Notes: generated by a model not told the origin, from the sequence alone. DNA of 27,332 nucleotides from a virus (IMGVR_UViG_3300020470_000169:1-27332), one strand, 5' to 3'; positions 2,870-25,402 are shown, counted from the first letter of the stretch. A program made the numbers and translations.

Positions 2870-4447
2870 TCATTCTGAATACCATCTTGTGCCTGTAGAG
2901 TCTACAAAGGTATCATCATCTCTTTGTTCTCCAAATACACCTGCTGGTAACATATCATCTTCTATCAACTTCTGTTGTTCTGCATATAATAAATCTTTCA
3001 CTGCTGTATCTGTTAGATTCGTAAAGAAATCGGTTGTCACAAACCATGAAAATAGAACACAATTCATTACCATATCGTCATGATAACCTCTATCTGCCTC
3101 AAATGATGACCCTTTATTTACATATGTCATCAATTCTGTAATTGTGTGTCTGTCTACTACAGTCAATCTATTTTCTTCAAGCAGTTCTTTTAAGGTTGAA
3201 CAACCTACTCTTTTTATCTTTCTACTCATTGTGATACCAATATCTGTTGATTTTGTCATACCTTGAACAAAAACATTTGGATATTCGATATCATAATGTA
3301 GTTGTGTTGCGACCATAGAACCCTCTGCATTGTTTTCGATTATAACAAGGGCTTCGTTATATGGTCTACAATACTTATTTATTAAATCCGGAAACAGCAT
3401 GGGGCTTATCATGTTATCTCTATATGTGCAAACTTGTTTAAATGGTTTGACTGATACATCGAAGATACTAAAAGTAGAATAGTCTATACCTCTTCCTTGC
3501 GATACATCGACTGTTGCAACATAGTTATGACCTGCTTTTGGTCTTTCATATACTCGTATATTGTCTTTTTGCCAATCGGGGTCTATCGCTCTCATACCTA
3601 ATAATGTGTCTGCATTGATAAGTGTATTACCTGTTCCTAAGAAACTATTACCATACTCTTGTTCAAACTGTGCCTCAGATGTGTTTGCAATGGTCATTTT
3701 CTTCCATTCTTCATCACGACCTGGCACATCAAACCAGTTAATTAAAAAACTTTTATATTCAGATTGGTCATGAACTGCTGATTCATATATCTTATGAAAC
3801 ATATTACCTACACCATTTGCAGTAGATGTGATAATAACTTTAGAATCTTTACCAGATGTGATTACAGGATATGTCGCAGTATAGAATGTTTCTGCATCTT
3901 CTACGAAAGCAAACTCATCGAGATACAACATGTTAATTGACATACCACGAATTGATGATGAAGATGTTGCGGCTGCCACTATCTTACTATCATTACCAAA
4001 CTCAATATTACCTTTGTTTAGTATCTTAACTCCTGGTTGTAAGAAGAAAGGAACGGTTTCTAACATGGTTACGATTCTCGCAATCATTTCCCTTGCGATT
4101 GCCCCTTTGTTCGCCAGAATCGCCACAGTGACTTCTGGAGTGAACAGGAGATACCATAGTAGATACGCACAAGATGTGATTGATTTGCCTGACTGTCTAG
4201 CAGCCAATACTACACTAAATCTGTTGTCATTGTAGTGTTTGATTAACTCTTCTTGATATCCACGAAGTTCAAAAGGAACTAAACCCTCATCAAGTGATAT
4301 AATCTGAGTATATGTTTCTATAAAATGGCAGGGGTCTTCGGAACATTTTTGATATTCTACTAGTTGTTCTTCGGTATAAGATGTTTCTACACCTGCTCTC
4401 TTGATTAGATTATTACCTAGATAACCCTCATTCTTAGCCTGCACCAT
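2870..4447 (-). CDS. 17: Large terminase subunit gp17 (packaging ATPase/nuclease)
   Basis: Motor that pumps DNA into the prohead and cuts the concatemer. At 525 aa it is shorter than T4 gp17 (610 aa). The N-terminal ATPase shows a Walker A loop AARQSGKS at residues 82-89, a Walker B MLYLDE at 173-178 with catalytic Glu178, and a coupling motif TSTANG at 207-212. The C-terminal RNase H-type nuclease shows its three acidic positions: Asp314 in VATVDVSQG, Glu371 in VIIENNAEG and Asp457/Asp458 in YHDDM, matching T4 Asp401, Glu458 and Asp542. The start at 4447 overlaps the end of the methyltransferase gene by 14 bases, suggesting coupled translation. Confidence 0.97.
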   Translation of the reverse strand: MVQAKNEGYLGNNLIKRAGVETSYTEEQLVEYQKCSEDPCHFIETYTQIISLDEGLVPFELRGYQEELIKHYNDNRFSVVLAARQSGKSITSCAYLLWYLLFTPEVTVAILANKGAIAREMIARIVTMLETVPFFLQPGVKILNKGNIEFGNDSKIVAAATSSSSIRGMSINMLYLDEFAFVEDAETFYTATYPVITSGKDSKVIITSTANGVGNMFHKIYESAVHDQSEYKSFLINWFDVPGRDEEWKKMTIANTSEAQFEQEYGNSFLGTGNTLINADTLLGMRAIDPDWQKDNIRVYERPKAGHNYVATVDVSQGRGIDYSTFSIFDVSVKPFKQVCTYRDNMISPMLFPDLINKYCRPYNEALVIIENNAEGSMVATQLHYDIEYPNVFVQGMTKSTDIGITMSRKIKRVGCSTLKELLEENRLTVVDRHTITELMTYVNKGSSFEADRGYHDDMVMNCVLFSWFVTTDFFTNLTDTAVKDLLYAEQQKLIEDDMLPAGVFGEQRDDDTFVDSTGTRWYSE

Positions 4448-5186
4448 GTCTTAACCCCCAATGAGATATAGGTAAGTGATTACTAACTTCATACTCGTTA
4501 TCAAAAGATAATATCCAACCTAGATAATTATTAACTTGCATATACTTTAAATCTTTTATATGTCCTTTCCATATGATTTCTTTACTATCTACTCTGTTTT
4601 TGTATATTGAATTCAATGTTAAATCACTGTAGTGTTCTTCTATAAACTGTCTAGAATACTTACCATGAGAGTATAGTTTTATGTCTTCATACTCTGTTAT
4701 AGATTCTCCTTCTATACTTGATAGTTCAACTGTATTAGGATATAACTTATCTATAAAATTATTTTTCTTTGCATACTCTACTAAATCTAGTATGTGACCA
4801 ACTTCGAGTTCTTTATCTCCTTCTTCATAGAAGTTTCTAAGAAATCTTTTCTCATTCCAAAACTCTGATGTCAACCATTCATGTAGATAGATATCACATT
4901 CTGGTAATTCAGTTTCTAATAAATCTGCATGTATATACTCTACAGTGTCACCTAGTATTTCTTTCATTCTATGAATGAGTCTGCCTCTTCTTTCTAAGGC
5001 ATATACTTTCTTAGCACCATATTTAACTGCGAGATAACATAGTATACCTGAACCTGCGCCCAAATCTATTACTATTTTATCTTTTACATTCTCAGATATC
5101 CAATTTTCGTATGCGGTGTTTCTCTGAGAATCAGTAAAACAATATGCAGTTTTAAAGAATCTTAGTAGTTCTTCATTCTTTAACAT
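4434..5186 (-). CDS. PRMT-like SAM-dependent methyltransferase
   Basis: A 250-aa class I methyltransferase wedged between the small and large terminase genes, where T4 has nothing. The SAM-binding motif I is VIDLGAGSG at residues 39-47, with the motif II acid at Glu65 (YALE). Two features point to the protein arginine methyltransferase subgroup. Glu103 and Glu112 in LHEWLTSEFWNE have the same nine-residue spacing as the PRMT 'double-E' loop. The C-terminus carries SHW at 241-243, like the PRMT 'THW' loop. The protein stops soon after that, so it lacks the longer C-terminal strands of eukaryotic PRMTs. It overlaps both neighbours by exactly 14 bases. Methyltransferase is secure; arginine specificity and target are inference, and a packaging or capsid protein or a host protein are all possible. 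Confidence 0.85.
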   Translation of the reverse strand: MLKNEELLRFFKTAYCFTDSQRNTAYENWISENVKDKIVIDLGAGSGILCYLAVKYGAKKVYALERRGRLIHRMKEILGDTVEYIHADLLETELPECDIYLHEWLTSEFWNEKRFLRNFYEEGDKELEVGHILDLVEYAKKNNFIDKLYPNTVELSSIEGESITEYEDIKLYSHGKYSRQFIEEHYSDLTLNSIYKNRVDSKEIIWKGHIKDLKYMQVNNYLGWILSFDNEYEVSNHLPISHWGLRHGAG

Positions 5187-8651: not shown

Positions 8652-8912
8652 TTAATCTTGGAAATAAGTTTTAGTTTGAAGTCTATCTATTTTTTCGTCT
8701 ATTCTTTCTATAGAGTCGATAATTCTTTGAAAAGTTTGTTCCATTTGTTCTCTAGTGACATAATCTTTTGCAATCTCTTCTCTGGTCTTGTTGATAAGAA
8801 TGTCCATTCTTTTCTGTTCTGCAAAGATACCACGAATCATCCAACCTACAGGAACTACTACAACTGTAAGTATTACATTCCAAAGCAAGTGTGGGTCTAT
8901 GACTATATCCAT
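8652..8912 (-). CDS. Small membrane-anchored coiled-coil protein
   Basis: An 86-aa protein whose residues 8-30 form one hydrophobic segment (LLWNVILTVVVVPVGWMI), ending in a positive stretch, which predicts an N-out, C-in anchor. Residues 33-80 are a charged helical region with heptad-like spacing (MDILINKT, VTREQMEQ, IIDSIERIDEKIDRL), so oligomerisation through a coiled coil is likely. I do not recognise a named family. Small proteins of this shape occur in marine T4-like phages beside the neck genes; a role in lysis or membrane attachment is only a guess. A perfect late promoter ends 6 bases before its ATG and overlaps the stop of the upstream oxygenase gene. Confidence 0.75.
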   Translation of the reverse strand: MDIVIDPHLLWNVILTVVVVPVGWMIRGIFAEQKRMDILINKTREEIAKDYVTREQMEQTFQRIIDSIERIDEKIDRLQTKTYFQD

Positions 8913-8918
8913 ACAAAC

Positions 8919-8926
8919 TATTTATA
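8919..8926 (-). promoter_or_regulatory. Late promoter for the small membrane protein gene
   Basis: Perfect TATAAATA on the minus strand; its TAA is also the stop codon of the preceding oxygenase gene. Only GTTTGT separates it from the ATG at 8912, so the mRNA would have almost no leader. Confidence 0.65.
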
Positions 8927-9632
8927 AGTTTATCGGTCTGCCAGACTCATCTACTTCAAAGTTAAATCCACAGTTTTCTTCATCTAAAACTTTGCCACTT
9001 TTAATTCTTAGACCACTATGTAAATCATTTGTTTCGCAATTAAATGAGATACTATATCTGTCTTTATCAGTTGTATTTGGTTCAACCATATGCATCAAAC
9101 CACTAGGAAACAAAAACAAATCTCCTGTTCTAGGTGATTCAACTTCTGACTCTCTTATTCTAGGCATGTTTGGCATATTACCTACTACTTTAAAATGCGT
9201 ATCAATGAATCGTATATTACCCTCATCGCCATCTGCTTTGATATAGAATACGCCTGAATAGAAACAACCATTGTGTAAATGTGGTGCGTTCCAACCATGA
9301 GTATAGTTTATGTTTGCCCATGAATTATGCATTATACATTCAGCAGTTCCTGGCACTGCACCTAAGTAAGGCATAAGTTCATGTGCAACAACTCTTTTAA
9401 TTTCTCTCATCAATTTATTGAATATAGGATTATCATCTATACCATCATTAGATTGCCAACCATGACCTGCATTTGAGCGTCTTCTTCCTTGTGGGTCTCT
9501 TACTCTCATTGCATCTATTTCTTTTTTACACATATCAAAGTATTCAGCAGTCATACCTTTCTTGAAGTCTATCTCTTTGTGTAAATAAGACTTTGCAACT
9601 GTCACTGTTGGAAAAACTAATTTAATCGCCAT
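8922..9632 (-). CDS. Putative 2OG-Fe(II) oxygenase (marine phage type)
   Basis: A 236-aa protein with the double-stranded beta-helix pattern of 2-oxoglutarate/iron oxygenases. Candidate iron ligands are His118/His120 in APHLHNGCFYSGVFYI and His181 in FPSGLMHMVEPN; Arg192 in RYSISFN would bind 2-oxoglutarate. The first motif is His-x-His-Asn rather than the textbook His-x-Asp. This agrees with my memory of the phage/marine family TIGR02466 (PF13759), common near tail genes of cyanophages. Ligand assignment should be treated as provisional. The start overlaps the previous gene by 11 bases. The substrate is unknown; a virion protein side chain is plausible given the neighbouring repeat proteins and glycosyltransferase. 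Confidence 0.82.
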   Translation of the reverse strand: MAIKLVFPTVTVAKSYLHKEIDFKKGMTAEYFDMCKKEIDAMRVRDPQGRRRSNAGHGWQSNDGIDDNPIFNKLMREIKRVVAHELMPYLGAVPGTAECIMHNSWANINYTHGWNAPHLHNGCFYSGVFYIKADGDEGNIRFIDTHFKVVGNMPNMPRIRESEVESPRTGDLFLFPSGLMHMVEPNTTDKDRYSISFNCETNDLHSGLRIKSGKVLDEENCGFNFEVDESGRPINL

Positions 9633-10515
9633 CGTGATTTAACTCCGTAAGTTTCTTTTGTTCTTTTTTGAAGTCTTTATCCATATGCATAGGACACTCT
9701 GGTGGTGGTTCTTCTTCTGAATAGAACTGACCTTTCTCTTTCCAATATCCTTCATTTCTGTAAGGACCTAATTGATTTGTTTTTTCTTTTGTAAAATCAT
9801 ACTTAGTTCTGCCTTGTTCATCCATTGTCATCATATCATGATGAGATGTATGTTTACTTCTATTCTCATGCCATATCTTAGAATCTTTTAACTGATATGT
9901 TGCAACCCATTCTTCCCTTTTAAAAGGTATGACTTGACATAATGGTGTTCCTTTTGGTATAGTAAACGAATGATTTACTTTAGGATAGAATATGATTTGT
10001 GAATTGTCTTGGTTGACATTGAACTCATCTGTATCTATAATACCATGCCATGTTGCAAAGTATTCATTTTGAAATAGAAATGGGTCCAGATAATAACAAG
10101 AATATCCTTTAGGTGTAATTATGTTCCAAGGATTTCTACACTTAAATGCATCTTTGACATGACCAAACTCTCCGTCTTTAATGTATTCAAATGCATTATC
10201 AAATTGGTCACTCGGATGTGTGGGTGAGTTATAATTTTTATTACTTGGGTCACTTGTTGTAAAGTTTTCATTTGATAATGATTCTCTATCAGAACCACAT
10301 AGAACTTCTATATCTCTATTTGCAAGTAAATACCAACCTGATTTAGTCCAATCATGCATCGCTGGGCAAGCACGAATAGTTTGCGTTCTTCTTCCTCTTA
10401 TCGATTGAAAAACTTTCATTTTCTTCCACCATGAAGGAAGAACTGACTTCGCTAAGACAGGTTTAAAATTACGAAGTGTATCTTCGTTAAAAGTTGTAAA
10501 GTCTATCGTTGGCAT
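9622..10515 (-). CDS. DUF6065-like protein of unknown function
   Basis: A 297-aa protein of unknown role. Conserved-looking blocks are 'LPSWWKKMK' (26-34), 'IRACPAMHDWTKSGWYLLANRDIEV' split around residues 48-71, 'RNPWNIITPKGYS' (127-139), 'GIIDTDEF' (158-165) and 'IPKGTPLCQVIPFKREEW' (186-203). This order (Cys-Pro plus hydrophobic Trp block, NPW.I.TP.GYS, DTD, KGTP..Q.IP..R) recalls the family I know as DUF6065; I recall it from memory and have not searched. The C-terminal 70 residues are charged and probably disordered. It overlaps the oxygenase genes on both sides (29 and 11 bases), so all three are probably made together and may act in one pathway. Its beta-rich core could be another jelly-roll enzyme, but I see no clear metal triad. 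Confidence 0.7.
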   Translation of the reverse strand: MPTIDFTTFNEDTLRNFKPVLAKSVLPSWWKKMKVFQSIRGRRTQTIRACPAMHDWTKSGWYLLANRDIEVLCGSDRESLSNENFTTSDPSNKNYNSPTHPSDQFDNAFEYIKDGEFGHVKDAFKCRNPWNIITPKGYSCYYLDPFLFQNEYFATWHGIIDTDEFNVNQDNSQIIFYPKVNHSFTIPKGTPLCQVIPFKREEWVATYQLKDSKIWHENRSKHTSHHDMMTMDEQGRTKYDFTKEKTNQLGPYRNEGYWKEKGQFYSEEEPPPECPMHMDKDFKKEQKKLTELNHDGD

Positions 10516-11215
10516 TATATAATTCTTCTGAATCGACTAACTCGATTTCATCTCCTCTTAAAACTATTGAACATCTATCTGCGTATCTAGCTTTTTCATC
10601 TGGTGCATCAGCGCCATGTGGTATTCTTCCATCAAATATTAAAAGACGATTCGGAACAAACTCAATACTTCCGATACAATGTTCTTTAACATGTTCTTCT
10701 CTTCCATCTATACCTTCTTGAAAAGAATCGTATATTCTTAAATCACCACCCCATGCAGGATTCCAAAATGTATTATAATAATACAGAAATGATAAGTTCC
10801 ATTCATCATTTGGGTCACAATCAGCATGAGTTGTTCCATGTTGACCAAATGTTTGTGAATTTGTTCCCATGTATTGAAATCTTTTCCATTTGAATCCAAA
10901 GTCTGTGCATATTCTACGATTCAAATACTTGCCAGGCAATGATTGAAAATTTGTGCAATCTCCTCTTATTAAACTTCCGTCTTCTCTTTGACCAATAAAA
11001 AAGGCGGCGCCCCATAATTCATGATGTGGCAAACCTGTTTTACTTTGACCTCTTACTCTGTTAGACTTAGACCACATATTTGCTGAGTCTAAGTAATTTT
11101 CAATCCAATGATGTAAAGATGTTTCTAGATAATTATCAATAACATATACCTTGTCTAAAGGCATATCTTTTATCTTGAATGGTTTATCTAGGTAAGAGAC
11201 CTCTATCTGGTCCAT
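10487..11215 (-). CDS. Prolyl-4-hydroxylase-type 2OG-Fe(II) oxygenase
   Basis: A 242-aa protein with a complete canonical 2OG-Fe(II) site. The first ligands are His130 and Asp132 in HGTTHADCD, the distal ligand is His200 in FDGRIPHGADAP, and the 2-oxoglutarate anchor is Arg214 in ADRCSIVLRG. Between them lies 'NLSFLYYYN..WNPAWGGDLRIYD', the 'GG.L.IYD' strand typical of the prolyl 4-hydroxylase alpha-subunit family (P4Hc, PF13640). It is expected to be a cytoplasmic enzyme hydroxylating a protein side chain or small molecule. It is the second gene after the glycosyltransferase fusion and overlaps the DUF6065-like gene by 29 bases. Substrate is unknown; the Pro-containing repeat proteins encoded just upstream are attractive candidates (inference). 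Confidence 0.88.
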   Translation of the reverse strand: MDQIEVSYLDKPFKIKDMPLDKVYVIDNYLETSLHHWIENYLDSANMWSKSNRVRGQSKTGLPHHELWGAAFFIGQREDGSLIRGDCTNFQSLPGKYLNRRICTDFGFKWKRFQYMGTNSQTFGQHGTTHADCDPNDEWNLSFLYYYNTFWNPAWGGDLRIYDSFQEGIDGREEHVKEHCIGSIEFVPNRLLIFDGRIPHGADAPDEKARYADRCSIVLRGDEIELVDSEELYNANDRLYNF

Positions 11216-11218
11216 AGA

Positions 11219-11770
11219 TTACCCTATTAAAGATTGTTGTGGTCTAGGTAATTGATTTGCGTAATGTTCGTAATCTAAAAGTAAATCTTCTCTTGTTGAT
11301 TTAATTTCATTCGCAACATTTACATAAACATTCCAAACTGCATCGTAATATTCTAATACTCTTCTTGCATCAGACCTTAATGGATGATTTGAACCTTCTC
11401 TTCCAGCTGCAATACATTCTATAACATCTGTAAAACCATATGATGATACTTGTTCAGCACAATAATTATTACACATGTTTACTAAGTTTTCACTGTATTG
11501 ATTGTTTAGATTCACATGTTCTGGTGGTGCTGAATTATCAATATACTGTTCAATCGCATCTACTTCATCATCAGCAAGTGTAATCTTTTCTTGGTCGTCA
11601 AATAGAACATTCTCTTTCCATTTCATAATCTTAACTTCGATGTCATCATATACTAAAACATCGTAGTCAAAACCTAAATCAGGTCTATCAGTATTTTCGA
11701 ATGTCCATTCTAGGCCATTTGGTTTTCTAATAGTAAGATTTCCGTTCTCACAATAAATTAACATATTCAT
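11219..11770 (-). CDS. Possible tail-fibre assembly chaperone
   Basis: A 183-aa protein without a motif I can name with certainty. Residues 1-55 are beta-rich (LIYCENGNLTIRKPNG...). Residues 128-176 read 'HPLRSDARRVLEYYDAVW...' and end in 'HYANQLPRPQ'. A helix with 'A...L.Y.DAVW' followed by a short linker and 'LP.P' is the layout of many phage tail-fibre assembly chaperones, which sit next to fibre genes as this one does. The assignment is therefore plausible but not proved. An AGGAG lies 5 bases before the ATG at 11770; a second in-frame ATG two codons later is less well spaced. It lies between the ParB-like/glycosyltransferase gene and the hydroxylase gene. Confidence 0.55.
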   Translation of the reverse strand: MNMLIYCENGNLTIRKPNGLEWTFENTDRPDLGFDYDVLVYDDIEVKIMKWKENVLFDDQEKITLADDEVDAIEQYIDNSAPPEHVNLNNQYSENLVNMCNNYCAEQVSSYGFTDVIECIAAGREGSNHPLRSDARRVLEYYDAVWNVYVNVANEIKSTREDLLLDYEHYANQLPRPQQSLIG

Positions 11771-11788
11771 AATATCTCCTATTATACT

Positions 11789-13303
11789 CTATTTTATGTG
11801 TTTGTTCAATAGTCTTTCGTAAATATTTAGGTGTTCTATCTGAGAGGTATCCATGCCCTCAATCCAAGGACCACCTCTTGTATAATGATACGCACTTGGT
11901 CGCCAGTTAGTTTCTTCGGTATCATGTCCTTCTGTAAATACATACCAATCTGGTATCTCAGATATCTTATCTGTCCATTCAAATTGATGTAGATACTTAC
12001 CCGATTCTGTATTTACTATTTCAGGTGTAAGTTTCTTACAGTCTTCATGTGCATTATTGAATATCATTAGCGAAGACCATAGTTTCTTCGGATAAGAAAC
12101 ATTCTTTTCACCATTAAATTTAGTATCTACATACTTATCAAAATCATATTTGATACATGCGACTGCATCATCTAAATCTAAGAAGTAGAACATTGGTAAT
12201 ATACTTTCTGTAAATAGTATATCATCGTCTAAGAATATACTAAATCCTTCGTAATTTTCTAAGTATGGTATTAAGAATCTACTGTATGTAAACTCTGTTG
12301 ATTGATTTGCGTAATCTCTAGTATACTCTGGTATCTTTGAGATGTCAAGAAACTTGATTTCAGGTACCCACTTATCCATCTGATTATATGTTTCACCAGA
12401 ACCTGCACCAAAGATAATACCTGATTCTAAACATTTCTTGTTTAGTTCTGCAACACTTGTATGTCTAGAATCATAACCAATGTATATGTTTAGATGTTTA
12501 CCTTTTGATAGTTCAGATACTTTCTTATTGTAATCATAGACACTATCTCTAAATTTTAAGTTCTGCATATCAGTATTGAATTCAATATAACCATGAGTAT
12601 AACCAAAAGACATATTTCTATACTGACCTTCTTTTAAATTATCTTTCACCCAATTTATAATATCATCAACTGAAACTTCATCTACAGGTATCGCATCATG
12701 ACTATCCCATATCCACATCTCTAAACTCTCATCGTTCATACATTCGAATACACCAGAACGAACAGAACCTGGATGAATTGATAGTCTAAACATATCACCA
12801 GATTTGGTCACAATACCTTGAATAGGATTCCAAAGTCCTTCTTTGCGTATTGAATCAACTAACCAGTGTGCCTTTGCACCATGATAGTAAACTGAATCTG
12901 CTTGAGATTTTATTGCACCCTCAGATAAATGTTTTGTTATATCTACATATTCGTCATCTAGATTCATAAAGTCCATACCAGATTGACCTGGTTGTGGTGT
13001 CTCTGGTTTCTGAGTATAACCGTGAGGTAAAAAGTAATGATATGCGTATGCAAGAGATTGAAGTTTGTTCCAACCCATAAACTTTTTTTCTTTGACTAGT
13101 TTTAGTATATCACCCCATGTAACCTTTTTTAATTTACCTGTGTGATTCTCCATAACCCATTTAACTGACTTATATGTTTCAGTGTCTTGATAGTTGTTGT
13201 CTACTTCTAGTGAACCTAGATTGCAATGCCAAAATTTATCTTTGACATCATCTGTTGAAAATAATTCTTTGGTATGCTCAAAAGAGTTTGATTTTACGCT
13301 CAT
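11789..13303 (-). CDS. ParB-like domain fused to a GT-A glycosyltransferase
   Basis: A 504-aa two-domain protein. Residues about 136-190 (HGAKAHWLVDSIRKEGLWNP, then MFRLSIHPGSVRSGVFE) have the pattern of a ParB/sulfiredoxin-fold N-terminal domain ('L..SI...GL..PI....R...HPG..R'). Residues about 270-480 look like a GT-A glycosyltransferase related to family 8. They open with LNIYIGYDSRHTSVAEL, carry the metal-binding DxD motif in FLDDDILF (Asp359-361), and end with YHYTRGGPW (472-480), which parallels the 'H..G..KPW' motif of GT8. The first 130 residues are not recognised. It follows the second octad-repeat gene by 30 bases and has its own near-perfect late promoter. Glycosylation of fibre or repeat proteins is the natural guess; DNA or cell-surface substrates are not excluded. 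Confidence 0.8.
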   Translation of the reverse strand: MSVKSNSFEHTKELFSTDDVKDKFWHCNLGSLEVDNNYQDTETYKSVKWVMENHTGKLKKVTWGDILKLVKEKKFMGWNKLQSLAYAYHYFLPHGYTQKPETPQPGQSGMDFMNLDDEYVDITKHLSEGAIKSQADSVYYHGAKAHWLVDSIRKEGLWNPIQGIVTKSGDMFRLSIHPGSVRSGVFECMNDESLEMWIWDSHDAIPVDEVSVDDIINWVKDNLKEGQYRNMSFGYTHGYIEFNTDMQNLKFRDSVYDYNKKVSELSKGKHLNIYIGYDSRHTSVAELNKKCLESGIIFGAGSGETYNQMDKWVPEIKFLDISKIPEYTRDYANQSTEFTYSRFLIPYLENYEGFSIFLDDDILFTESILPMFYFLDLDDAVACIKYDFDKYVDTKFNGEKNVSYPKKLWSSLMIFNNAHEDCKKLTPEIVNTESGKYLHQFEWTDKISEIPDWYVFTEGHDTEETNWRPSAYHYTRGGPWIEGMDTSQIEHLNIYERLLNKHIK

Positions 13304-13330
13304 AATATAAATTCCTAATACTGTTTAGAG

Positions 13331-13338
13331 TATTTATG
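13331..13338 (-). promoter_or_regulatory. Late promoter for the glycosyltransferase gene
   Basis: CATAAATA on the minus strand (one mismatch to TATAAATA), overlapping the stop of the preceding octad-repeat gene and about 27 bases before the ATG at 13303. An AGGA ribosome site lies between. Confidence 0.55.
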
Positions 13339-14470
13339 ATGTAATAGGAGTACCAGGCCACTGATTAGCAGGGTTACCATCCCAACGGATTACTGGTGTT
13401 CTGCCTTGTCTTGCGTATGTAAATGGCGACCTGTGGTCATAAGTTGTAGGTGTTCTTCCTGTTGCCTGATATGTTGAAGGACTTCTGTGTTGATATGTGA
13501 AAGGTGTTTGACCTTGTCTCGCATATGTTGAAGGACTTCTGTGGTCATAAGTAAATGGTGTCTGACTACTTGCAGGATGCCTGTAGATAGACGGACTTCT
13601 ATGGTCATATGTAAACGGTGACCTGTGGTCATAAGTTGCAGGACTTCTATGTTGATATGTGAACGGAGTCTGATTATTTCTTATAACAGGATTCTGTGCG
13701 TTTACAGAAGCTCTATAGTTCGCTGTTGTTTGTGCATTTCTAATATTAGGTTCTTGTTGGTTTCTAATGTTAGGTTCTTGTGCATTTCTGATATTAGGTT
13801 CTTGTTTATCTCTAATTACAGGTTCTTGTGCGTTTGCAATGTAAGGTGTTTGTGCATTTCTGATAAACGGATTCTGAGTGCTAATCTGTTGGTCTCTAAT
13901 TACAGGTTCTTGTGCCGCCCTAATATTTGGTTCTTGTGCATTTGCAGGTTGTCTTGCATCTCTGATGTTTGGTTCTTGTGCTGACCTAATATTTGGTTGT
14001 TGTGCATTACTTGTAATCTGTTGGTCTCTAATTACAGGTTCTTGTTTCGCTCTAATGTTTGGTTCTTGTGCATTAGCGATATATGGTGATTGTGCGTTCT
14101 TAATTGTAGGTTGTTGATTATCTCTAATGTTTGGTTGTTGTGCTGATACAGGTAATCTATATCCTGCTGGTTGTTGTGCTGAACGAATATTAGGTTCTTG
14201 AGCAGATACAGGTAATCTATATCCTGCTGGTTGTCTTGCGTTTCTTATATTTGGTTGTTGAGCAGATGCAATATACGGTGATTGAAATGTAAATGGATTC
14301 TGACCAGTAAAAGGTTGTCTGCCTTGATTTATAAAAGGAGATTGGAAAGTAAACGGACTTTGAGATGTAAAAGGCTGCCTACCTTGATTTATAAAAGGCG
14401 ACTGAAAAGTAAACGGACTCTGAGCAGTGTTCGGTTGTTGTCCATTTGCTGTTGTAGGTAATCGTGGCAT
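13334..14470 (-). CDS. Octad-repeat protein D
   Basis: A 378-aa protein made almost entirely of eight-residue units of the form x-x-(Q/R)-x-P-x-(I/T)-(R/Y). Residues 10-70 are Phe-rich units (SPFTFQSPFINQGRQPFT), the middle is the NAQEPNIR type, and the C-terminal third is the DHRSPFTY type with variants such as QHRSPSTY and RQGQTPFT. The end leaves the pattern (RWDGNPANQWPGTPITS). There is no signal peptide, membrane segment or known domain. Such a regular, Pro-punctuated, low-hydrophobicity repeat suggests an extended fibre or coat. It lies in the same frame as the Hint-containing gene upstream, separated by one stop codon and one sense codon. The start at 14470 is the first ATG after that stop. 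Function unknown. Confidence 0.8.
   Translation of the reverse strand: MPRLPTTANGQQPNTAQSPFTFQSPFINQGRQPFTSQSPFTFQSPFINQGRQPFTGQNPFTFQSPYIASAQQPNIRNARQPAGYRLPVSAQEPNIRSAQQPAGYRLPVSAQQPNIRDNQQPTIKNAQSPYIANAQEPNIRAKQEPVIRDQQITSNAQQPNIRSAQEPNIRDARQPANAQEPNIRAAQEPVIRDQQISTQNPFIRNAQTPYIANAQEPVIRDKQEPNIRNAQEPNIRNQQEPNIRNAQTTANYRASVNAQNPVIRNNQTPFTYQHRSPATYDHRSPFTYDHRSPSIYRHPASSQTPFTYDHRSPSTYARQGQTPFTYQHRSPSTYQATGRTPTTYDHRSPFTYARQGRTPVIRWDGNPANQWPGTPITS
13370..14443 (-). repeat. 24-bp coding repeats of octad protein D
   Basis: Tandem degenerate 24-base units encoding the octads, about 45 in number. On the plus strand they show as recurring ggttcttgtgcatttgcaat-like and acttctatggtcatatgtaa-like words. 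Neighbouring copies differ mostly at synonymous or tolerated positions. Confidence 0.85.
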
Positions 14471-14473
14471 ATC

Positions 14474-16240
14474 TTATCTCTTCTGTTGTTCCCCTTGGTT
14501 ATTTCCATTACCAAAGTTATGAACTAGCATACCATTCGCAAAGAATGTATGTGTTCCTTCGATTCCTGATAAGTTGTGAACTATCATTTCTGAGTTTTCT
14601 TCTACAGAAAGTATTTCTAGTCCAACTTCATCTTCTCTATCAAACATGATAGCGTCTGTCATCGAGAATAAATTATCCCCGACTTTGATTTCATGAGAGT
14701 TTACACCCTCCATCCATTCGTGTTCTCTAACACATTTCTCTACATCGAAAGCACCCCACTCGCCATTTGCAAGCATGATTGGGTGACTATCGGTGACTTG
14801 TAATATTCTTCCATCAGATAATGCAACATCGTATACAGGACATGTTCTTGGTTCCATGATGAGAGATATTGGTTTTGGTTCTATCAACTTAGTATCTTCG
14901 TTCCAAGTCATTACTAATTGACCTAACATACAATGTTCTATAGGTGCATGACTTCCATCTGCAAGCCATATCATTGTTCCTGGTGCGAAACAACCACCTG
15001 TCGGCAATTGGACTGGATGCTGAACATTCACAATAACAGGACTTCTTGAAGAGTTAGGTTGTCTTGCACTATTCGGTTGTCTTGATTGGAAAGTGAATGG
15101 GTTCTGACCTGTATTCGGTTGTCTTGCACTATTCGGTTGTCTAGACTGGAATGTAAATGGATTCTGACCAGTGAAAGGTTGTCTTGCACTGTTAGGTTGT
15201 CTAGACTGATATGTGAAAGGTGACCTGTGATTATATGTAAACGGATTCTGATACGCTCTTGGGTCACGATATGTAAATGGTGACCTATGATTGTATGTGA
15301 ACGGATTACGATAAGCTCTTGGGTCTCTGTATGTAAATGGTGACCTGTGGTCATATGTAGACGGCGACCTATGGTCGTATGTCACTGGTTGTCTGTTCTG
15401 ATATGTTGACGGCGACCTATGGTCATATGTAAATGGCGACCTATGCTGATATGTTGTAGGGTTCTGATAAATCGATGGCGACCTGTGGTCATATGTAAAT
15501 GGCGACCTGTGTTGATATGTAAATGGCACCTGATATGTTGAAGGTGACCTATGGTCATATGTAAACGGACTTCTATGTTGATAAGTTGTCGGTGTTCTAG
15601 AAGGACTTCTATGTTGATATGTCGAAGGTTGCCTATTCTGATAAGTTGATGGCGACCTATGGTCATATGTAAAAGGACTTCTATGGTCGTATGTAGACGG
15701 TGACCTATGTTGATATATTATAGGACTTCTATGGTCATATGTAGAAGGATTCTGATAACTTCTAGGGTCTCTGTATGTAGACGGTGACCTGTGGTCATAT
15801 GTTCCTGGTTGTCTTGCATCTCTAATATTAGGTTGCTGTTGTGACCTTATGTTTGGTTCTTGTGCATCTCTAATTACAGGTTCTTGAGCAGATGCTGGGT
15901 GTTGATAGATTGCAGGTTGTCTTGCATCTCTAATATTTGGCTCTTGTGCATTTGCAATATAAGGATAAGGTTGTTGTGCCGACCTGATATTGGGTTCTTG
16001 TGCGTTTGCAATGTAAGGATAAGGATTCTGTTTATCTCTTATGTTTGGTTCTTGACCATTTGCAATATAAGGATATGGTTGTTGAACAGACTCTTGACCA
16101 GATGCATTGTTCCAACCTGTTGGTGTTTTAATATAGATTTGGTCTACATCTTTCCAAGTTCCTGATGCAGTCTTAACCCATGCGCCTCTAGTCGCATTCC
16201 AACCTGTTGGTGTTTTTACTTTCTGTGAGCCTGATGCCAT
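14474..16240 (-). CDS. Octad-repeat protein C with C-terminal Hint domain
   Basis: A 588-aa protein in three parts. Residues 1-50 hold two KTPTGWN motifs (9-15, 38-44) around WVKTASGTWKDVDQIYIK, a small 'VK..GTWK' module seen in phage tail proteins. Residues 53-410 are eight-residue repeats, NAQEPNIR type then DHRSPSTY type. Residues 417-575 are a Hint (hedgehog/intein) domain: Cys417 in CFAPGTMIWLADGS, the block B VTDSHPI with His486, and a C-terminal HTFFANGMLVHN ending His574-Asn575. The residue after Asn is Phe rather than Cys, Ser or Thr, so ordinary splicing is not expected; self-cleavage is. Thirteen residues follow before the stop. The gene has a near-consensus late promoter at 16259-16266. 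A self-processing structural fibre is the best guess. Confidence 0.85.
   Translation of the reverse strand: MASGSQKVKTPTGWNATRGAWVKTASGTWKDVDQIYIKTPTGWNNASGQESVQQPYPYIANGQEPNIRDKQNPYPYIANAQEPNIRSAQQPYPYIANAQEPNIRDARQPAIYQHPASAQEPVIRDAQEPNIRSQQQPNIRDARQPGTYDHRSPSTYRDPRSYQNPSTYDHRSPIIYQHRSPSTYDHRSPFTYDHRSPSTYQNRQPSTYQHRSPSRTPTTYQHRSPFTYDHRSPSTYQVPFTYQHRSPFTYDHRSPSIYQNPTTYQHRSPFTYDHRSPSTYQNRQPVTYDHRSPSTYDHRSPFTYRDPRAYRNPFTYNHRSPFTYRDPRAYQNPFTYNHRSPFTYQSRQPNSARQPFTGQNPFTFQSRQPNSARQPNTGQNPFTFQSRQPNSARQPNSSRSPVIVNVQHPVQLPTGGCFAPGTMIWLADGSHAPIEHCMLGQLVMTWNEDTKLIEPKPISLIMEPRTCPVYDVALSDGRILQVTDSHPIMLANGEWGAFDVEKCVREHEWMEGVNSHEIKVGDNLFSMTDAIMFDREDEVGLEILSVEENSEMIVHNLSGIEGTHTFFANGMLVHNFGNGNNQGEQQKR
14516..14992 (-). 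other. Hint (intein/hedgehog-type) autoprocessing domain
   Basis: Codons 417-575 of octad protein C. Block A starts at Cys417 (preceded by Gly-Gly); block B is TDSH at 483-486; blocks F/G are HTFF (564-567) and MLVHN (571-575). No homing-endonuclease domain is present: the span is only 159 residues, the size of mini-inteins and bacterial intein-like (BIL) domains. The +1 residue is Phe576, which resembles type B BIL domains that cleave rather than splice. Confidence 0.88.
15010..16084 (-). repeat. 24-bp coding repeats of octad protein C
   Basis: About 43 tandem degenerate 24-base units, with occasional 18-base (six-residue) units where RDPRAY and QNPFTY occur. They are closely similar in sequence to the arrays at 13370-14443, 23327-23948 and 24715-25360. 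Confidence 0.85.
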
Positions 16241-16258: not shown

Positions 16259-16266
16259 TATTTATT
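16259..16266 (-). promoter_or_regulatory. Probable late promoter for octad protein C
   Basis: AATAAATA on the minus strand (one mismatch to TATAAATA), about 18 bases before the ATG at 16240 and overlapping the stop of the upstream fibre gene. Confidence 0.4.
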
Positions 16267-23171: not shown

Positions 23172-23999
23172 TTATTCGTCAAAGTTTGTAGTTGGTCTTT
23201 GATGTATCTTTTCTACAGTTGAACTATCTTTCTTAACGAATACTTTTTGCACACTTCTTACGCCTTGTGAGTCTTTTAAGAATACGCCTTTTACTTTAGC
23301 AACTGGTCCTATAGGTCTTCTATTATTATATGTGTGTTGATATATGAAAGGACTTCTATGATTGTAAGGCACAGGAATTCTATGTATGTAAGGAACATTA
23401 GTTTGTGCGTTTGCAATACTAGGTTGTTGAACACCTATAGTCACTTGATATATTACAGGACTTCTATGTTGATATGTAAATGGTGTTTGATTATTTCTAA
23501 TATTAGGTTCTTGTTGTGCCCTTATATTAGGTTGTTGATTATTTCTTATATTAGGTTGTTGTGCATCTCTAATATTAGGTTCTTGTTGATTTCTAATAAA
23601 AGGATTTTGTGCATTTACAGGTAATCTATAGTTTGCAGTAGTCTGTCTATTTCTAATATTAGGTTCTTGTGCGTTTGCTGGATTTCTATAGAAAGCAGGT
23701 TGTTGTGCATTTCTAATATTAGGTTCTTGTTGGTCTCTGATTACAGGTTCTCTCGCATCTCTAATTACAGGTTCTTGTGCCGCTCTAATGTTAGGCTCTT
23801 GTGCATTTGCAATGTAAGGAGATTGAGCATTTTTAATTGTTGGTTGTTGATTATCTCTAATGTTTGGTTGTTGTTTTGACCTAATATTAGGCTCTTGTGC
23901 ATTTGCAATATAAGGAGACTGCTTACTTCTAATGTTGGGCTCTTGGCCAACATGACCTGATGGTTGTCTAGTTTGTCCTGGTTGTCTTCCTGTTGCCAT
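23172..23999 (-). CDS. Octad-repeat protein B with basic C-terminal module
   Basis: A 275-aa protein. Residues 18-224 are eight-residue units, nearly all of the NAQEPNIR type (SKQQPNIR, DNQQPTIK, AAQEPVIR, DQQEPNIR), with a few HRSP-type units near the end. Residues 233-266 switch to a basic module 'KVKGVFLKDSQGVRSVQKVFVKKDS', which parallels the 'VK..GTWK.V..IYIK' module at the N-terminus of octad protein C. This suggests a common attachment element placed at opposite ends. No signal peptide or membrane segment. It starts 2 bases after the stop of octad protein A and is not in the same frame. Structural role inferred; family unknown to me by name. Confidence 0.78.
   Translation of the reverse strand: MATGRQPGQTRQPSGHVGQEPNIRSKQSPYIANAQEPNIRSKQQPNIRDNQQPTIKNAQSPYIANAQEPNIRAAQEPVIRDAREPVIRDQQEPNIRNAQQPAFYRNPANAQEPNIRNRQTTANYRLPVNAQNPFIRNQQEPNIRDAQQPNIRNNQQPNIRAQQEPNIRNNQTPFTYQHRSPVIYQVTIGVQQPSIANAQTNVPYIHRIPVPYNHRSPFIYQHTYNNRRPIGPVAKVKGVFLKDSQGVRSVQKVFVKKDSSTVEKIHQRPTTNFDE
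23327..23948 (-). repeat. 24-bp coding repeats of octad protein B
   Basis: About 25 tandem degenerate 24-base units, mostly encoding xxQ-P-NIR octads. Plus-strand words such as ctaatattaggttcttgtg recur many times. Confidence 0.85.
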
Positions 24000-24001
24000 G
24001 A

Positions 24002-25402
24002 TTATCTCAATGAAATTCCTGATGATGCAGTCAAGTTGATTCCCATGCCTGCAACTGAATAAGTTGTAAATATCGAAGTCTGCCCAGACTTAGATAATCT
24101 AAGTGTAAATTCTAATCCATAAGCAGTGCATTGTGCAGTTCTAGGTTGTTGCATTTGAGGAGTTCCTGTATCTGCTCTCCATCCAAAAGCTCTGTTTGTA
24201 TTAGTTCCGTTATAAGAACCTGCACTACTAGAACCAGTGTAAACACTATAGTAAGTACCCGATGTAAAACCTCCACCTTGCGAATCAGCAGCGGTAAAAC
24301 CATCATAGTTTGCACCTTGAGCACTCACTGAATATTTAACATCTACTGCCCATGTATCATCAACACCTGGAGTCACGCCTGTTGGATAACCACTTATATT
24401 AGAACCAATCGATACTTGATTAAAATATAAAGTTGCATACGCATTATTACCGCCACCATTGTAGAACATGTGAACAGAACCTTGTTCACTAGTGTTATTA
24501 CCATAAGTTGAATATGGTATAGTTGATGAACTTTTCTGATAGTCAAAAGACATATTAGAGAAAGACTGAGCTGATTGACCCTCAGGTCTTTGTGTGTGAA
24601 CACCTGTAACCCAATTAGGCGCACTGAATCCTTGGGGTGTTGATGAAGGTCCTGTTGAATCGCCATCGATTGCATCGTATATTACAGGTGATTGTGTAAT
24701 AGTCGGTGTCTGAATAGTATATGTAAATGGCGACCTGTGGTTATAATCTACTGGTTGTCTGTTATTATATGTTGACGGCGACCTATGGTCATATGTAAAC
24801 GGACTTCTATGTTGATATGTTGACGGTGACCTATGTTGATATGTAAAAGGTTGTCTGTTCTGATATGTTGAAGGTGACCTATGGTCGTATGTAAACGGAC
24901 TTCTATGTTGATAAGTAAATGGCGACCTGTGATTATAAGTCAACGGCGACCTGTGTTGATATGTAAATGGATTTCTATATGATACAGGGTCACGATATGT
25001 AGAAGGTGACCTATGGTCATAAGTAGAAGGATTCTGATATGTTCTAGGGTCACGATATGTTGAAGGACTTCTATGTTGATATGTTGCAGGACTTCTGTGG
25101 TCGTAAGTAAAAGGACTTCTATGGTCGTATGTAGACGGCGACCTATGTTGATATGTTAAAGGACTTCTATGTTGATAAGTTCCTGGTTGCCTCGCATCTC
25201 TTATATTAGGTTCTTGTTGGTCTCTTGGTTGTTGCGCTGTAGTTGGTGTTCTATGTTGATATGTTGAAGGTTGTTGCGCTGTTCTATTATTAGGCTGTTG
25301 AGTTTGCCTAATATTAGGTTCTTGTGCGTTTTTTGGAACTCTGGCAATGTAGGGTTGTTGTCCTAGAACCTGGTCCTGTTTTATAAAAATATCGTCTGAC
25401 AT
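24002..25402 (-). CDS. Octad-repeat protein A with unique C-terminal domain
   Basis: A 466-aa protein. After a short unique N-terminus (MSDDIFIKQDQVLGQQPYIA) residues 22-228 are eight-residue repeats: a few QEPNIR units and then a long run of DHRSPSTY/QHRSPFTY units, with six-residue variants (RDPRTY, QNPSTY). Residues 241-466 form a Gly/Ser/Tyr-rich globular-looking region with 'FSAPNWVTGVHTQRPEG', 'VHMFYNGGGNNAYATLYFN', 'GVDDTWAVDVKYSV' and 'AYGLEFTLRLSKSG'. I do not recognise this region; its alternating pattern suggests a beta structure such as a lectin-like or fibre-tip domain. It follows the partial fibre gene by 4 bases and precedes octad protein B by 2. Confidence 0.78.
   Translation of the reverse strand: MSDDIFIKQDQVLGQQPYIARVPKNAQEPNIRQTQQPNNRTAQQPSTYQHRTPTTAQQPRDQQEPNIRDARQPGTYQHRSPLTYQHRSPSTYDHRSPFTYDHRSPATYQHRSPSTYRDPRTYQNPSTYDHRSPSTYRDPVSYRNPFTYQHRSPLTYNHRSPFTYQHRSPFTYDHRSPSTYQNRQPFTYQHRSPSTYQHRSPFTYDHRSPSTYNNRQPVDYNHRSPFTYTIQTPTITQSPVIYDAIDGDSTGPSSTPQGFSAPNWVTGVHTQRPEGQSAQSFSNMSFDYQKSSSTIPYSTYGNNTSEQGSVHMFYNGGGNNAYATLYFNQVSIGSNISGYPTGVTPGVDDTWAVDVKYSVSAQGANYDGFTAADSQGGGFTSGTYYSVYTGSSSAGSYNGTNTNRAFGWRADTGTPQMQQPRTAQCTAYGLEFTLRLSKSGQTSIFTTYSVAGMGINLTASSGISLR
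24715..25360 (-). repeat. 24-bp coding repeats of octad protein A
   Basis: About 26 tandem degenerate 24-base units with several 18-base units. The plus-strand word acttctatgttgatatgt and variants recur in register. Confidence 0.85.

What the first reader, a model, noticed from the sequence alone, without database searches (positions are those of the whole stretch)
10487..16240. Possible hydroxyproline/glycosylation system acting on Pro-rich phage fibres
Directly downstream of Pro-punctuated repeat proteins (HRSPxTY units reminiscent in composition of extensin-type SP..Y repeats) lie a GT-A glycosyltransferase fusion, a P4H-type 2OG oxygenase with full HxD...H...R site, a DUF6065-like protein and a second 2OG oxygenase. 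The last three genes overlap one another. Hydroxylation of the octad Pro (or Asn/Arg/Tyr), followed by O-glycosylation, would give a phage counterpart of hydroxyproline-rich glycoproteins. The enzymes and repeats are seen; the link is inference.
Basis: inference. Interest (0 to 1): 0.85.

Follow-up and report, generated by a model that had tools for sequence, protein, structure and literature searches.

The report
Phage fibre repeats with modifying enzymes
A widespread group of uncultured marine T4-like phages always pairs proline-punctuated repeat proteins with the same neighbouring set of hydroxylase-like and sugar-transferase-like genes, so the phage may chemically decorate its own fibres, although no decoration has been shown and the proposed plant-like (extensin) architecture does not fit.

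Summary
On the minus strand, two proline-punctuated repeat proteins (octA, octB) are followed by a GT8-fold glycosyltransferase fusion, an unreported 183-aa ORF, a P4H-like 2OG oxygenase, a phrog_7084 protein and a second 2OG oxygenase (8922-9632, outside the stated range). The 'DUF6065' label is not supported; the model looks dUTPase-like.

Searching with repeats alone, 26/26 loci carry every cassette gene. Searching with the oxygenase, 30/30 carry repeats. Of 23 sister-lineage contigs, none has either. But this is one clade and probably one acquisition, and distant enzyme homologues occur in cyanophages in which no repeats were found. Late-promoter-like motifs precede octA and the enzyme set, which suits virion modification.

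The extensin analogy fails on structure: Pro-Pro spacing is even in 99.4% of 4,442 intervals, which points to a two-residue (beta-like) register rather than polyproline helix.

Best reading: a late virion-modification cassette whose likeliest substrate is the repeat proteins (0.5). The specific hydroxyproline-then-sugar version is about 0.2. Host-surface modification is the main rival. OctA often carries a Hint domain with conserved autoprocessing residues. No chemistry is shown.

The parts
14474..16240 (-). octA: repeat protein with conserved N-terminus (KTPTGWN...) and a C-terminal Hint/intein-like domain (about residues 417-575)
14516..14992 (-). Hint domain of octA: G|C1FAPGT, TxxH (TDSH), terminal HN; residue after HN is F (not C/S/T). 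Coordinates approximate
   Evidence: Pfam Intein_splicing E 3e-5 and Hint E 0.003, both below cut-off; alignment of relatives
13334..14470 (-). octB: repeat protein ending in the conserved RTPVIRWDG...QWPGTPITS
11789..13303 (-). GT8-fold glycosyltransferase (residues ~268-504) fused to an N-terminal domain with YYHxAKAHW...HPGSVR (residues 1-265)
11219..11770 (-). conserved 183-aa ORF, no family found, always between GT and P4H
10487..11215 (-). P4H-like 2OG-Fe(II) oxygenase (PF13640); H130xD132, H200, R214
8922..9632 (-). second 2OG-Fe(II) oxygenase (PF13759 / TIGR02466), with HLH in place of HxD/E
8652..8912 (-). 86-aa protein with a hydrophobic N-terminal segment (by eye), always the next gene
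16259..16265 (-). late-promoter-like ATAAATA 25 nt upstream of octA
   Evidence: 14 on the coding strand against 1 on the other
13331..13337 (-). late-promoter-like ATAAATA 34 nt upstream of the GT, overlapping the end of octB
23172..23999 (-). octC: further repeat protein (C-terminus AKVKGVF...KIHQ)
24002..25402 (-). octD: further repeat protein with a non-repeat C-terminal domain

Best explanation
The enzymes form a late-expressed cassette that modifies virion proteins, and the repeat (octad) proteins upstream are the likeliest substrate. Proposed mechanism: octA-D are made late as long beta-type fibres built on the motif [Q/R]-x-P-x-[T/I]-[Y/R/A]; the P4H-like enzyme and perhaps the second oxygenase hydroxylate a recurrent side chain in that motif (Pro is the most constant position), and the GT8-type enzyme then adds a sugar, to a new hydroxyl or to the recurrent Tyr/Thr/Ser; in many lineages octA is also cleaved or activated at Gly|Cys by its own Hint domain. 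Shown: genes, folds, invariant active-site residues, synteny, co-presence and co-absence. Inferred: late expression (promoter motifs), fibre location, beta structure, catalysis, substrate and residue.
For: Reciprocal synteny: 26/26 repeat-selected loci have all six downstream genes, 30/30 oxygenase-selected loci have repeats, 0/23 sister-lineage contigs have either. The order octA-octB-GT-hyp-P4H-phrog_7084-OG2-TM86-gp13 is kept down to about 50% protein identity. Active-site residues of P4H and GT are invariant across that range. Late-promoter-like motifs sit before octA and the GT. The GT fold matches protein-modifying GT8-type enzymes (glycogenin, GlyE, the Skp1 glucoside galactosyltransferase 6mw5) among others. 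The P4H profile's best PDB match is a prolyl 4-hydroxylase (E 0.002), then HIF prolyl hydroxylases. Pro is the most constant repeat residue: 2,427 spacings of 8 against 37 of 16.
Against: One clade and probably one gain, so synteny alone could be inheritance. GT8-type folds also glycosylate lipopolysaccharide (LgtC is among the best matches). Other 2OG oxygenases occur in the same genomes away from the repeats (L306). The phrog_7084 dUTPase-like fold and the GT's N-terminal domain have no obvious role in fibre modification. No proteomic evidence.
Confidence: 0.5

Rival explanations
1. The GT8-type enzyme and the oxygenases alter the host envelope (O-chain or other surface glycan) during infection, to exclude competing phages; sitting next to fibre genes reflects a host-recognition cluster.
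For: Pelagimyophage host-recognition clusters carry many GTs, most often GT8, and the authors propose O-chain modification (PMC7029224). LgtC, a lipooligosaccharide galactosyltransferase, is among the best fold matches.
Against: That model does not explain the fixed order and 100% coupling with the repeat proteins, nor two oxygenases in the same string. Late-promoter-like motifs suggest expression at a late stage, late for changing the surface.
Confidence: 0.2
2. Hitch-hiking: the cassette modifies another virion protein (baseplate, neck or non-repeat fibres) or has unrelated roles, and is linked to the repeats only because the structural region is inherited as a block.
For: All members are one lineage. 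Distant homologues of both oxygenases occur in cyanophages in which no repeats were found. The same genomes have more 2OG oxygenases elsewhere.
Against: Optional elements (Hint domain, MTase next to terL) come and go, while no enzyme is lost from any intact locus.
Confidence: 0.2
3. DNA or nucleotide modification: a 2OG oxygenase makes a hydroxylated base and the GT glucosylates it, as for base J, with the dUTPase-like protein acting on nucleotides.
For: Oxygenase plus GT is the logic of base J (own knowledge). phrog_7084 is dUTPase-like and keeps a GxIDxDxF segment like dUTPase motif III.
Against: The oxygenases match PF13640/PF13759, not Tet_JBP. The cassette lies inside late structural genes with late-promoter-like motifs, not among nucleotide or replication genes.
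Confidence: 0.07

Closest known systems
Plant hydroxyproline-rich glycoproteins (extensins) with P4H and Hyp glycosyltransferases
   Same: Pro/Ser/Tyr-rich repeat protein; P4H-like and GT-A enzymes nearby
   Different: Prolines are isolated and evenly spaced (mostly 6, 8, 10), one adjacent pair in 4,442 intervals; no SPPPP blocks. No modification shown.
Skp1 hydroxyproline glycosylation pathway of protists (own knowledge)
   Same: A cytoplasmic P4H plus GTs; a Skp1 galactosyltransferase (6mw5) is among the GT fold matches (Z 14.1)
   Different: Fold match only, tied with many other GT8-type enzymes; substrate is a repeat protein, not an F-box adaptor
Virus-encoded prolyl 4-hydroxylases and virion glycosyltransferases of chloroviruses and giant viruses (own knowledge)
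   Same: Virus-encoded P4H-like enzyme; best PDB profile hit is a P4H (6t8m, E 0.002); a PBCV-1 capsid GT is among the GT fold matches (2p73, Z 12.5)
   Different: Those are viruses of eukaryotes; here a T4-like phage with an unrelated repeat protein
Pelagimyophage/cyanophage host-recognition clusters with GT8 and 2OG genes (PMC7029224, PMC3037559)
   Same: T4-like marine phages with GT8 and 2OG genes, GTs near tail genes
   Different: Those papers propose host O-chain or 2-oxoglutarate roles; the passages read there do not describe the octad proteins or this fixed cassette
Bacterial intein-like (BIL)/Hint autoprocessing domains
   Same: Cys1, TxxH and terminal HN conserved in octA Hint domains
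   Different: Placed at the C-terminus of a phage repeat protein with a short tail; no C/S/T at +1

Membership tests
2OG-Fe(II) oxygenase, P4H-type (PF13640) | Pfam domain above cut-off | tested here: met
   33.5 bits against 27
2OG-Fe(II) oxygenase, P4H-type (PF13640) | HxD...H...R/K active site | tested here: met
   H130, D132, H200, R214 invariant in 27 sequences
Prolyl 4-hydroxylase (function) | hydroxylates peptidyl proline | not testable with these tools
   closest PDB profile hit is a P4H, E 0.002, suggestive only
2OG-FeII_Oxy_5 / TIGR02466 (second oxygenase) | family model above cut-off | tested here: met
   68.7 bits against 27; 92.9 against 62.5
2OG-FeII_Oxy_5 (second oxygenase) | complete Fe-binding triad | tested here: inconclusive
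   H118xH120, H181, R192 invariant, but HxH rather than HxD/E
Glycosyltransferase family 8 | GT-A fold of the GT8 type | tested here: met
   Z 15.0, rmsd 3.2 over 190 residues to 3tzt; Z 14.5 to LgtC
Glycosyltransferase family 8 | DxD metal site | tested here: met
   D359xD361 invariant
Glycosyltransferase family 8 | Pfam GT8 above curated cut-off | tested here: not met
   22.6 against 24.3 bits; so called 'GT8-like fold', not filed as a member
DUF6065 | Pfam model match | tested here: not met
   none in 26 members at E<=5
dUTPase superfamily (phrog_7084) | fold | tested here: inconclusive
   low-confidence model (pLDDT 59), but all 50 rows are dUTPases, Z 7.0-8.1; Foldseek E 0.04
dUTPase superfamily (phrog_7084) | catalytic motifs | tested here: inconclusive
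   GxIDxDxF present, PRSS motif not seen (read by eye)
Extensin/HRGP | contiguous or periodic proline blocks giving polyproline-II | tested here: not met
   spacing even in 4,414 of 4,442 intervals, one adjacent PP
T4 gp5 triple-stranded beta-helix (PF22178) | Pfam match above cut-off, reproducible across members | tested here: not met
   only octC, 21.0 against 30.9 bits; none of 10 other repeat proteins
BIL/Hint domain | Cys1, TxxH, terminal HN | tested here: met
   Pfam scores below cut-off
Splicing intein | C/S/T at +1 | tested here: not met
   F, M, Y, G, L, R or I instead

The most novel reading that the evidence does not exclude
A phage-encoded pathway that hydroxylates a recurrent residue (Pro or other) in its own beta-type repeat fibres and glycosylates it, coupled in many lineages to Hint-driven maturation of one fibre: a bacteriophage counterpart of a structural hydroxyprotein/glycoprotein system.
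Probability: 0.2. Interest if true: 0.85.

Novelty: new variant of a known kind. Interest (0 to 1): 0.6.

Why it matters
2OG oxygenases are among the commonest genes of unexplained purpose in marine T4-like phages. A lineage in which one of them is locked to a GT and to a highly regular repeat substrate candidate gives a concrete, testable hypothesis: post-translational modification of virion fibres. It would also define a new class of repeat protein with a strict two-residue register.

Tried and rejected
Extensin/HRGP architecture: rejected by even Pro spacing. T4 gp5 beta-helix membership: single sub-threshold hit, not reproduced; tblastn hits to Serratia phage gp5 and E. coli PhiR12_3 lie antisense to the annotated genes. 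DUF6065: no Pfam match. PDB search of a repeat protein: nothing. Octad DNA pattern in 84,980 prokaryote species genomes: two single hits; the one that could be read runs across stop codons, taken as chance. Cementoin Pfam hit to repeat proteins: treated as compositional. psbA search in six large contigs: none, so a cyanobacterial host is not indicated, though the records may be incomplete. Paper searches found no report of hydroxylated or hydroxyproline-containing phage fibres, in an open-access library only. The GT N-terminal domain recalls ParB-like HPGxxR proteins by eye; not tested, because the fold search was filled by the GT domain.

Full report
What the window is. The 27-kb window is a fragment of a T4-like marine myovirus. 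It holds tail tube, sheath, terminase large subunit, neck proteins and a fibre region, all on the minus strand. The closest isolate terminase is that of phage C48C1 at 57%. Six larger contigs of the same group show no psbA, so a cyanobacterial host is not indicated.

The observation. In order of transcription: octA (16240-14474), octB (14470-13334), GT (13303-11789), a 183-aa ORF (11770-11219), the P4H-like oxygenase (11215-10487), a phrog_7084 protein (10515-9622), a second 2OG oxygenase (9632-8922), an 86-aa ORF and gp13. The overlaps of 29 and 11 nt are as reported. Pfam supports both oxygenases above cut-off. The GT scores just under the GT8 cut-off, but its model (pLDDT 84) matches GT8-type enzymes at Z 14-15 over residues 268-504 and its DxD is invariant. 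H130, D132, H200 and R214 of the P4H-like protein are invariant in 27 relatives down to 50% identity. The second oxygenase has HLH where HxD/E is usual, so its metal site is uncertain. The 'DUF6065' label found no support. A low-confidence model of that protein returns only dUTPases among its listed matches, and an invariant GxIDxD segment resembles dUTPase motif III (read by eye).

The repeats. Across 119 non-redundant repeat proteins, Pro-Pro spacing is even in 4,414 of 4,442 intervals, against 47% in shuffles. The main spacings are 8 (2,427) and 6 (1,114). The core is [Q/R]-x-P-x-[T/I]-[Y/R/A]. In the window, the Ser of HRSP uses both AGT and TCN codons, so selection acts on the protein. 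A strict two-residue register suits extended beta structure and does not suit polyproline-II or collagen-like helices (three residues per turn; general knowledge). It therefore argues against the extensin analogy as architecture. It does not exclude hydroxylation of Pro.

The link. Forty-three loci were fetched with the P4H-like protein alone, more with its profile, and, independently, many with the repeats alone. Counting only distinct loci with enough flank: 26 of 26 repeat-selected loci carry GT, the 183-aa ORF, P4H, phrog_7084, the second oxygenase and the 86-aa ORF; 30 of 30 P4H-selected loci carry repeats upstream; none of 23 sister-lineage contigs (terminase about 53-60% identical to the window) with sequence upstream of gp13 has any cassette enzyme or repeat (gene orders). 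Optional elements such as the Hint domain and the methyltransferase next to terL vary within the clade, while no enzyme is missing from any intact locus. Two cautions apply. More distant homologues of the oxygenases are common in cyanophages in which no repeats were detected (the repeat search there ran with BLAST's low-complexity filter on), and the same genomes carry further 2OG oxygenases elsewhere, including a run of four oxygenase-like ORFs in one contig (L306).

Expression. The T4-type late-promoter core ATAAATA occurs 14 times on the coding strand and once on the other. Copies stand 25 nt before octA, 34 nt before the GT, and before the 86-aa ORF and gp13. This suggests, but does not prove, that the cassette is made late with virion proteins. 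It weighs against DNA modification and early host-surface change.

Hint domain. OctA ends in a Hint/intein-like domain in the window and in many relatives, with a Gly-rich linker in most, and Cys1, TxxH and terminal HN conserved, followed by a short tail without C/S/T at +1. Other lineages lack it. Cleavage or thioester formation at Gly|Cys is the natural inference; splicing is unlikely.

Verdict. A late virion-modification cassette with the repeat proteins as likeliest substrate is the best reading (0.5). Host O-chain modification, the role proposed in the literature for GT8 genes of pelagimyophages (PMC7029224), is the main rival, together with simple hitch-hiking in the structural block. 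No chemistry has been observed. The enzyme families are known; the repeat protein family and its fixed coupling to them were not found in the libraries and papers searched here.

Noticed in passing
window 14474-16240 (C-terminal third): Hint/intein-like domain with conserved Cys1, TxxH and HN at the end of a repeat protein; present in many relatives, absent in others.
   Followed up: partly
L306 4601-7545 (minus strand): Four oxygenase-like ORFs in a row at one end of a 140-kb relative; two of them were matched by PF13640. The other two were judged by eye.
   Followed up: no
window 9622-10515; Haloarcula/Halorubrum tailed viruses such as MZ334507.1: The phrog_7084 protein has its only isolate homologues, at this search depth, in haloarchaeal viruses and a dUTPase-like model; function unknown.
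   Followed up: partly
window 11789-13303, residues 1-265: N-terminal domain of the GT fusion with invariant YYHxAK.HW and HPG..R, resembling ParB-like proteins by eye; not tested.
   Followed up: no
phrog_274 (matches window 10487-11215): The phrog family matched by the P4H-like protein is annotated 'DNA endonuclease V', which looks like a misannotation, since the matching protein is a 2OG oxygenase.
   Followed up: partly
window 4434-5186: Methyltransferase-like gene between gp16 and terL, present in some relatives and missing in others.
   Followed up: no
window 23172-25402: Second pair of repeat proteins (octC, octD) with different C-terminal domains, conserved upstream of the fibre genes in relatives.
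   Followed up: partly
L031 2923-4167, L035 48-1292: P4H-like ORF with a long N-terminal extension (about 170 aa) in one sublineage.
   Followed up: no
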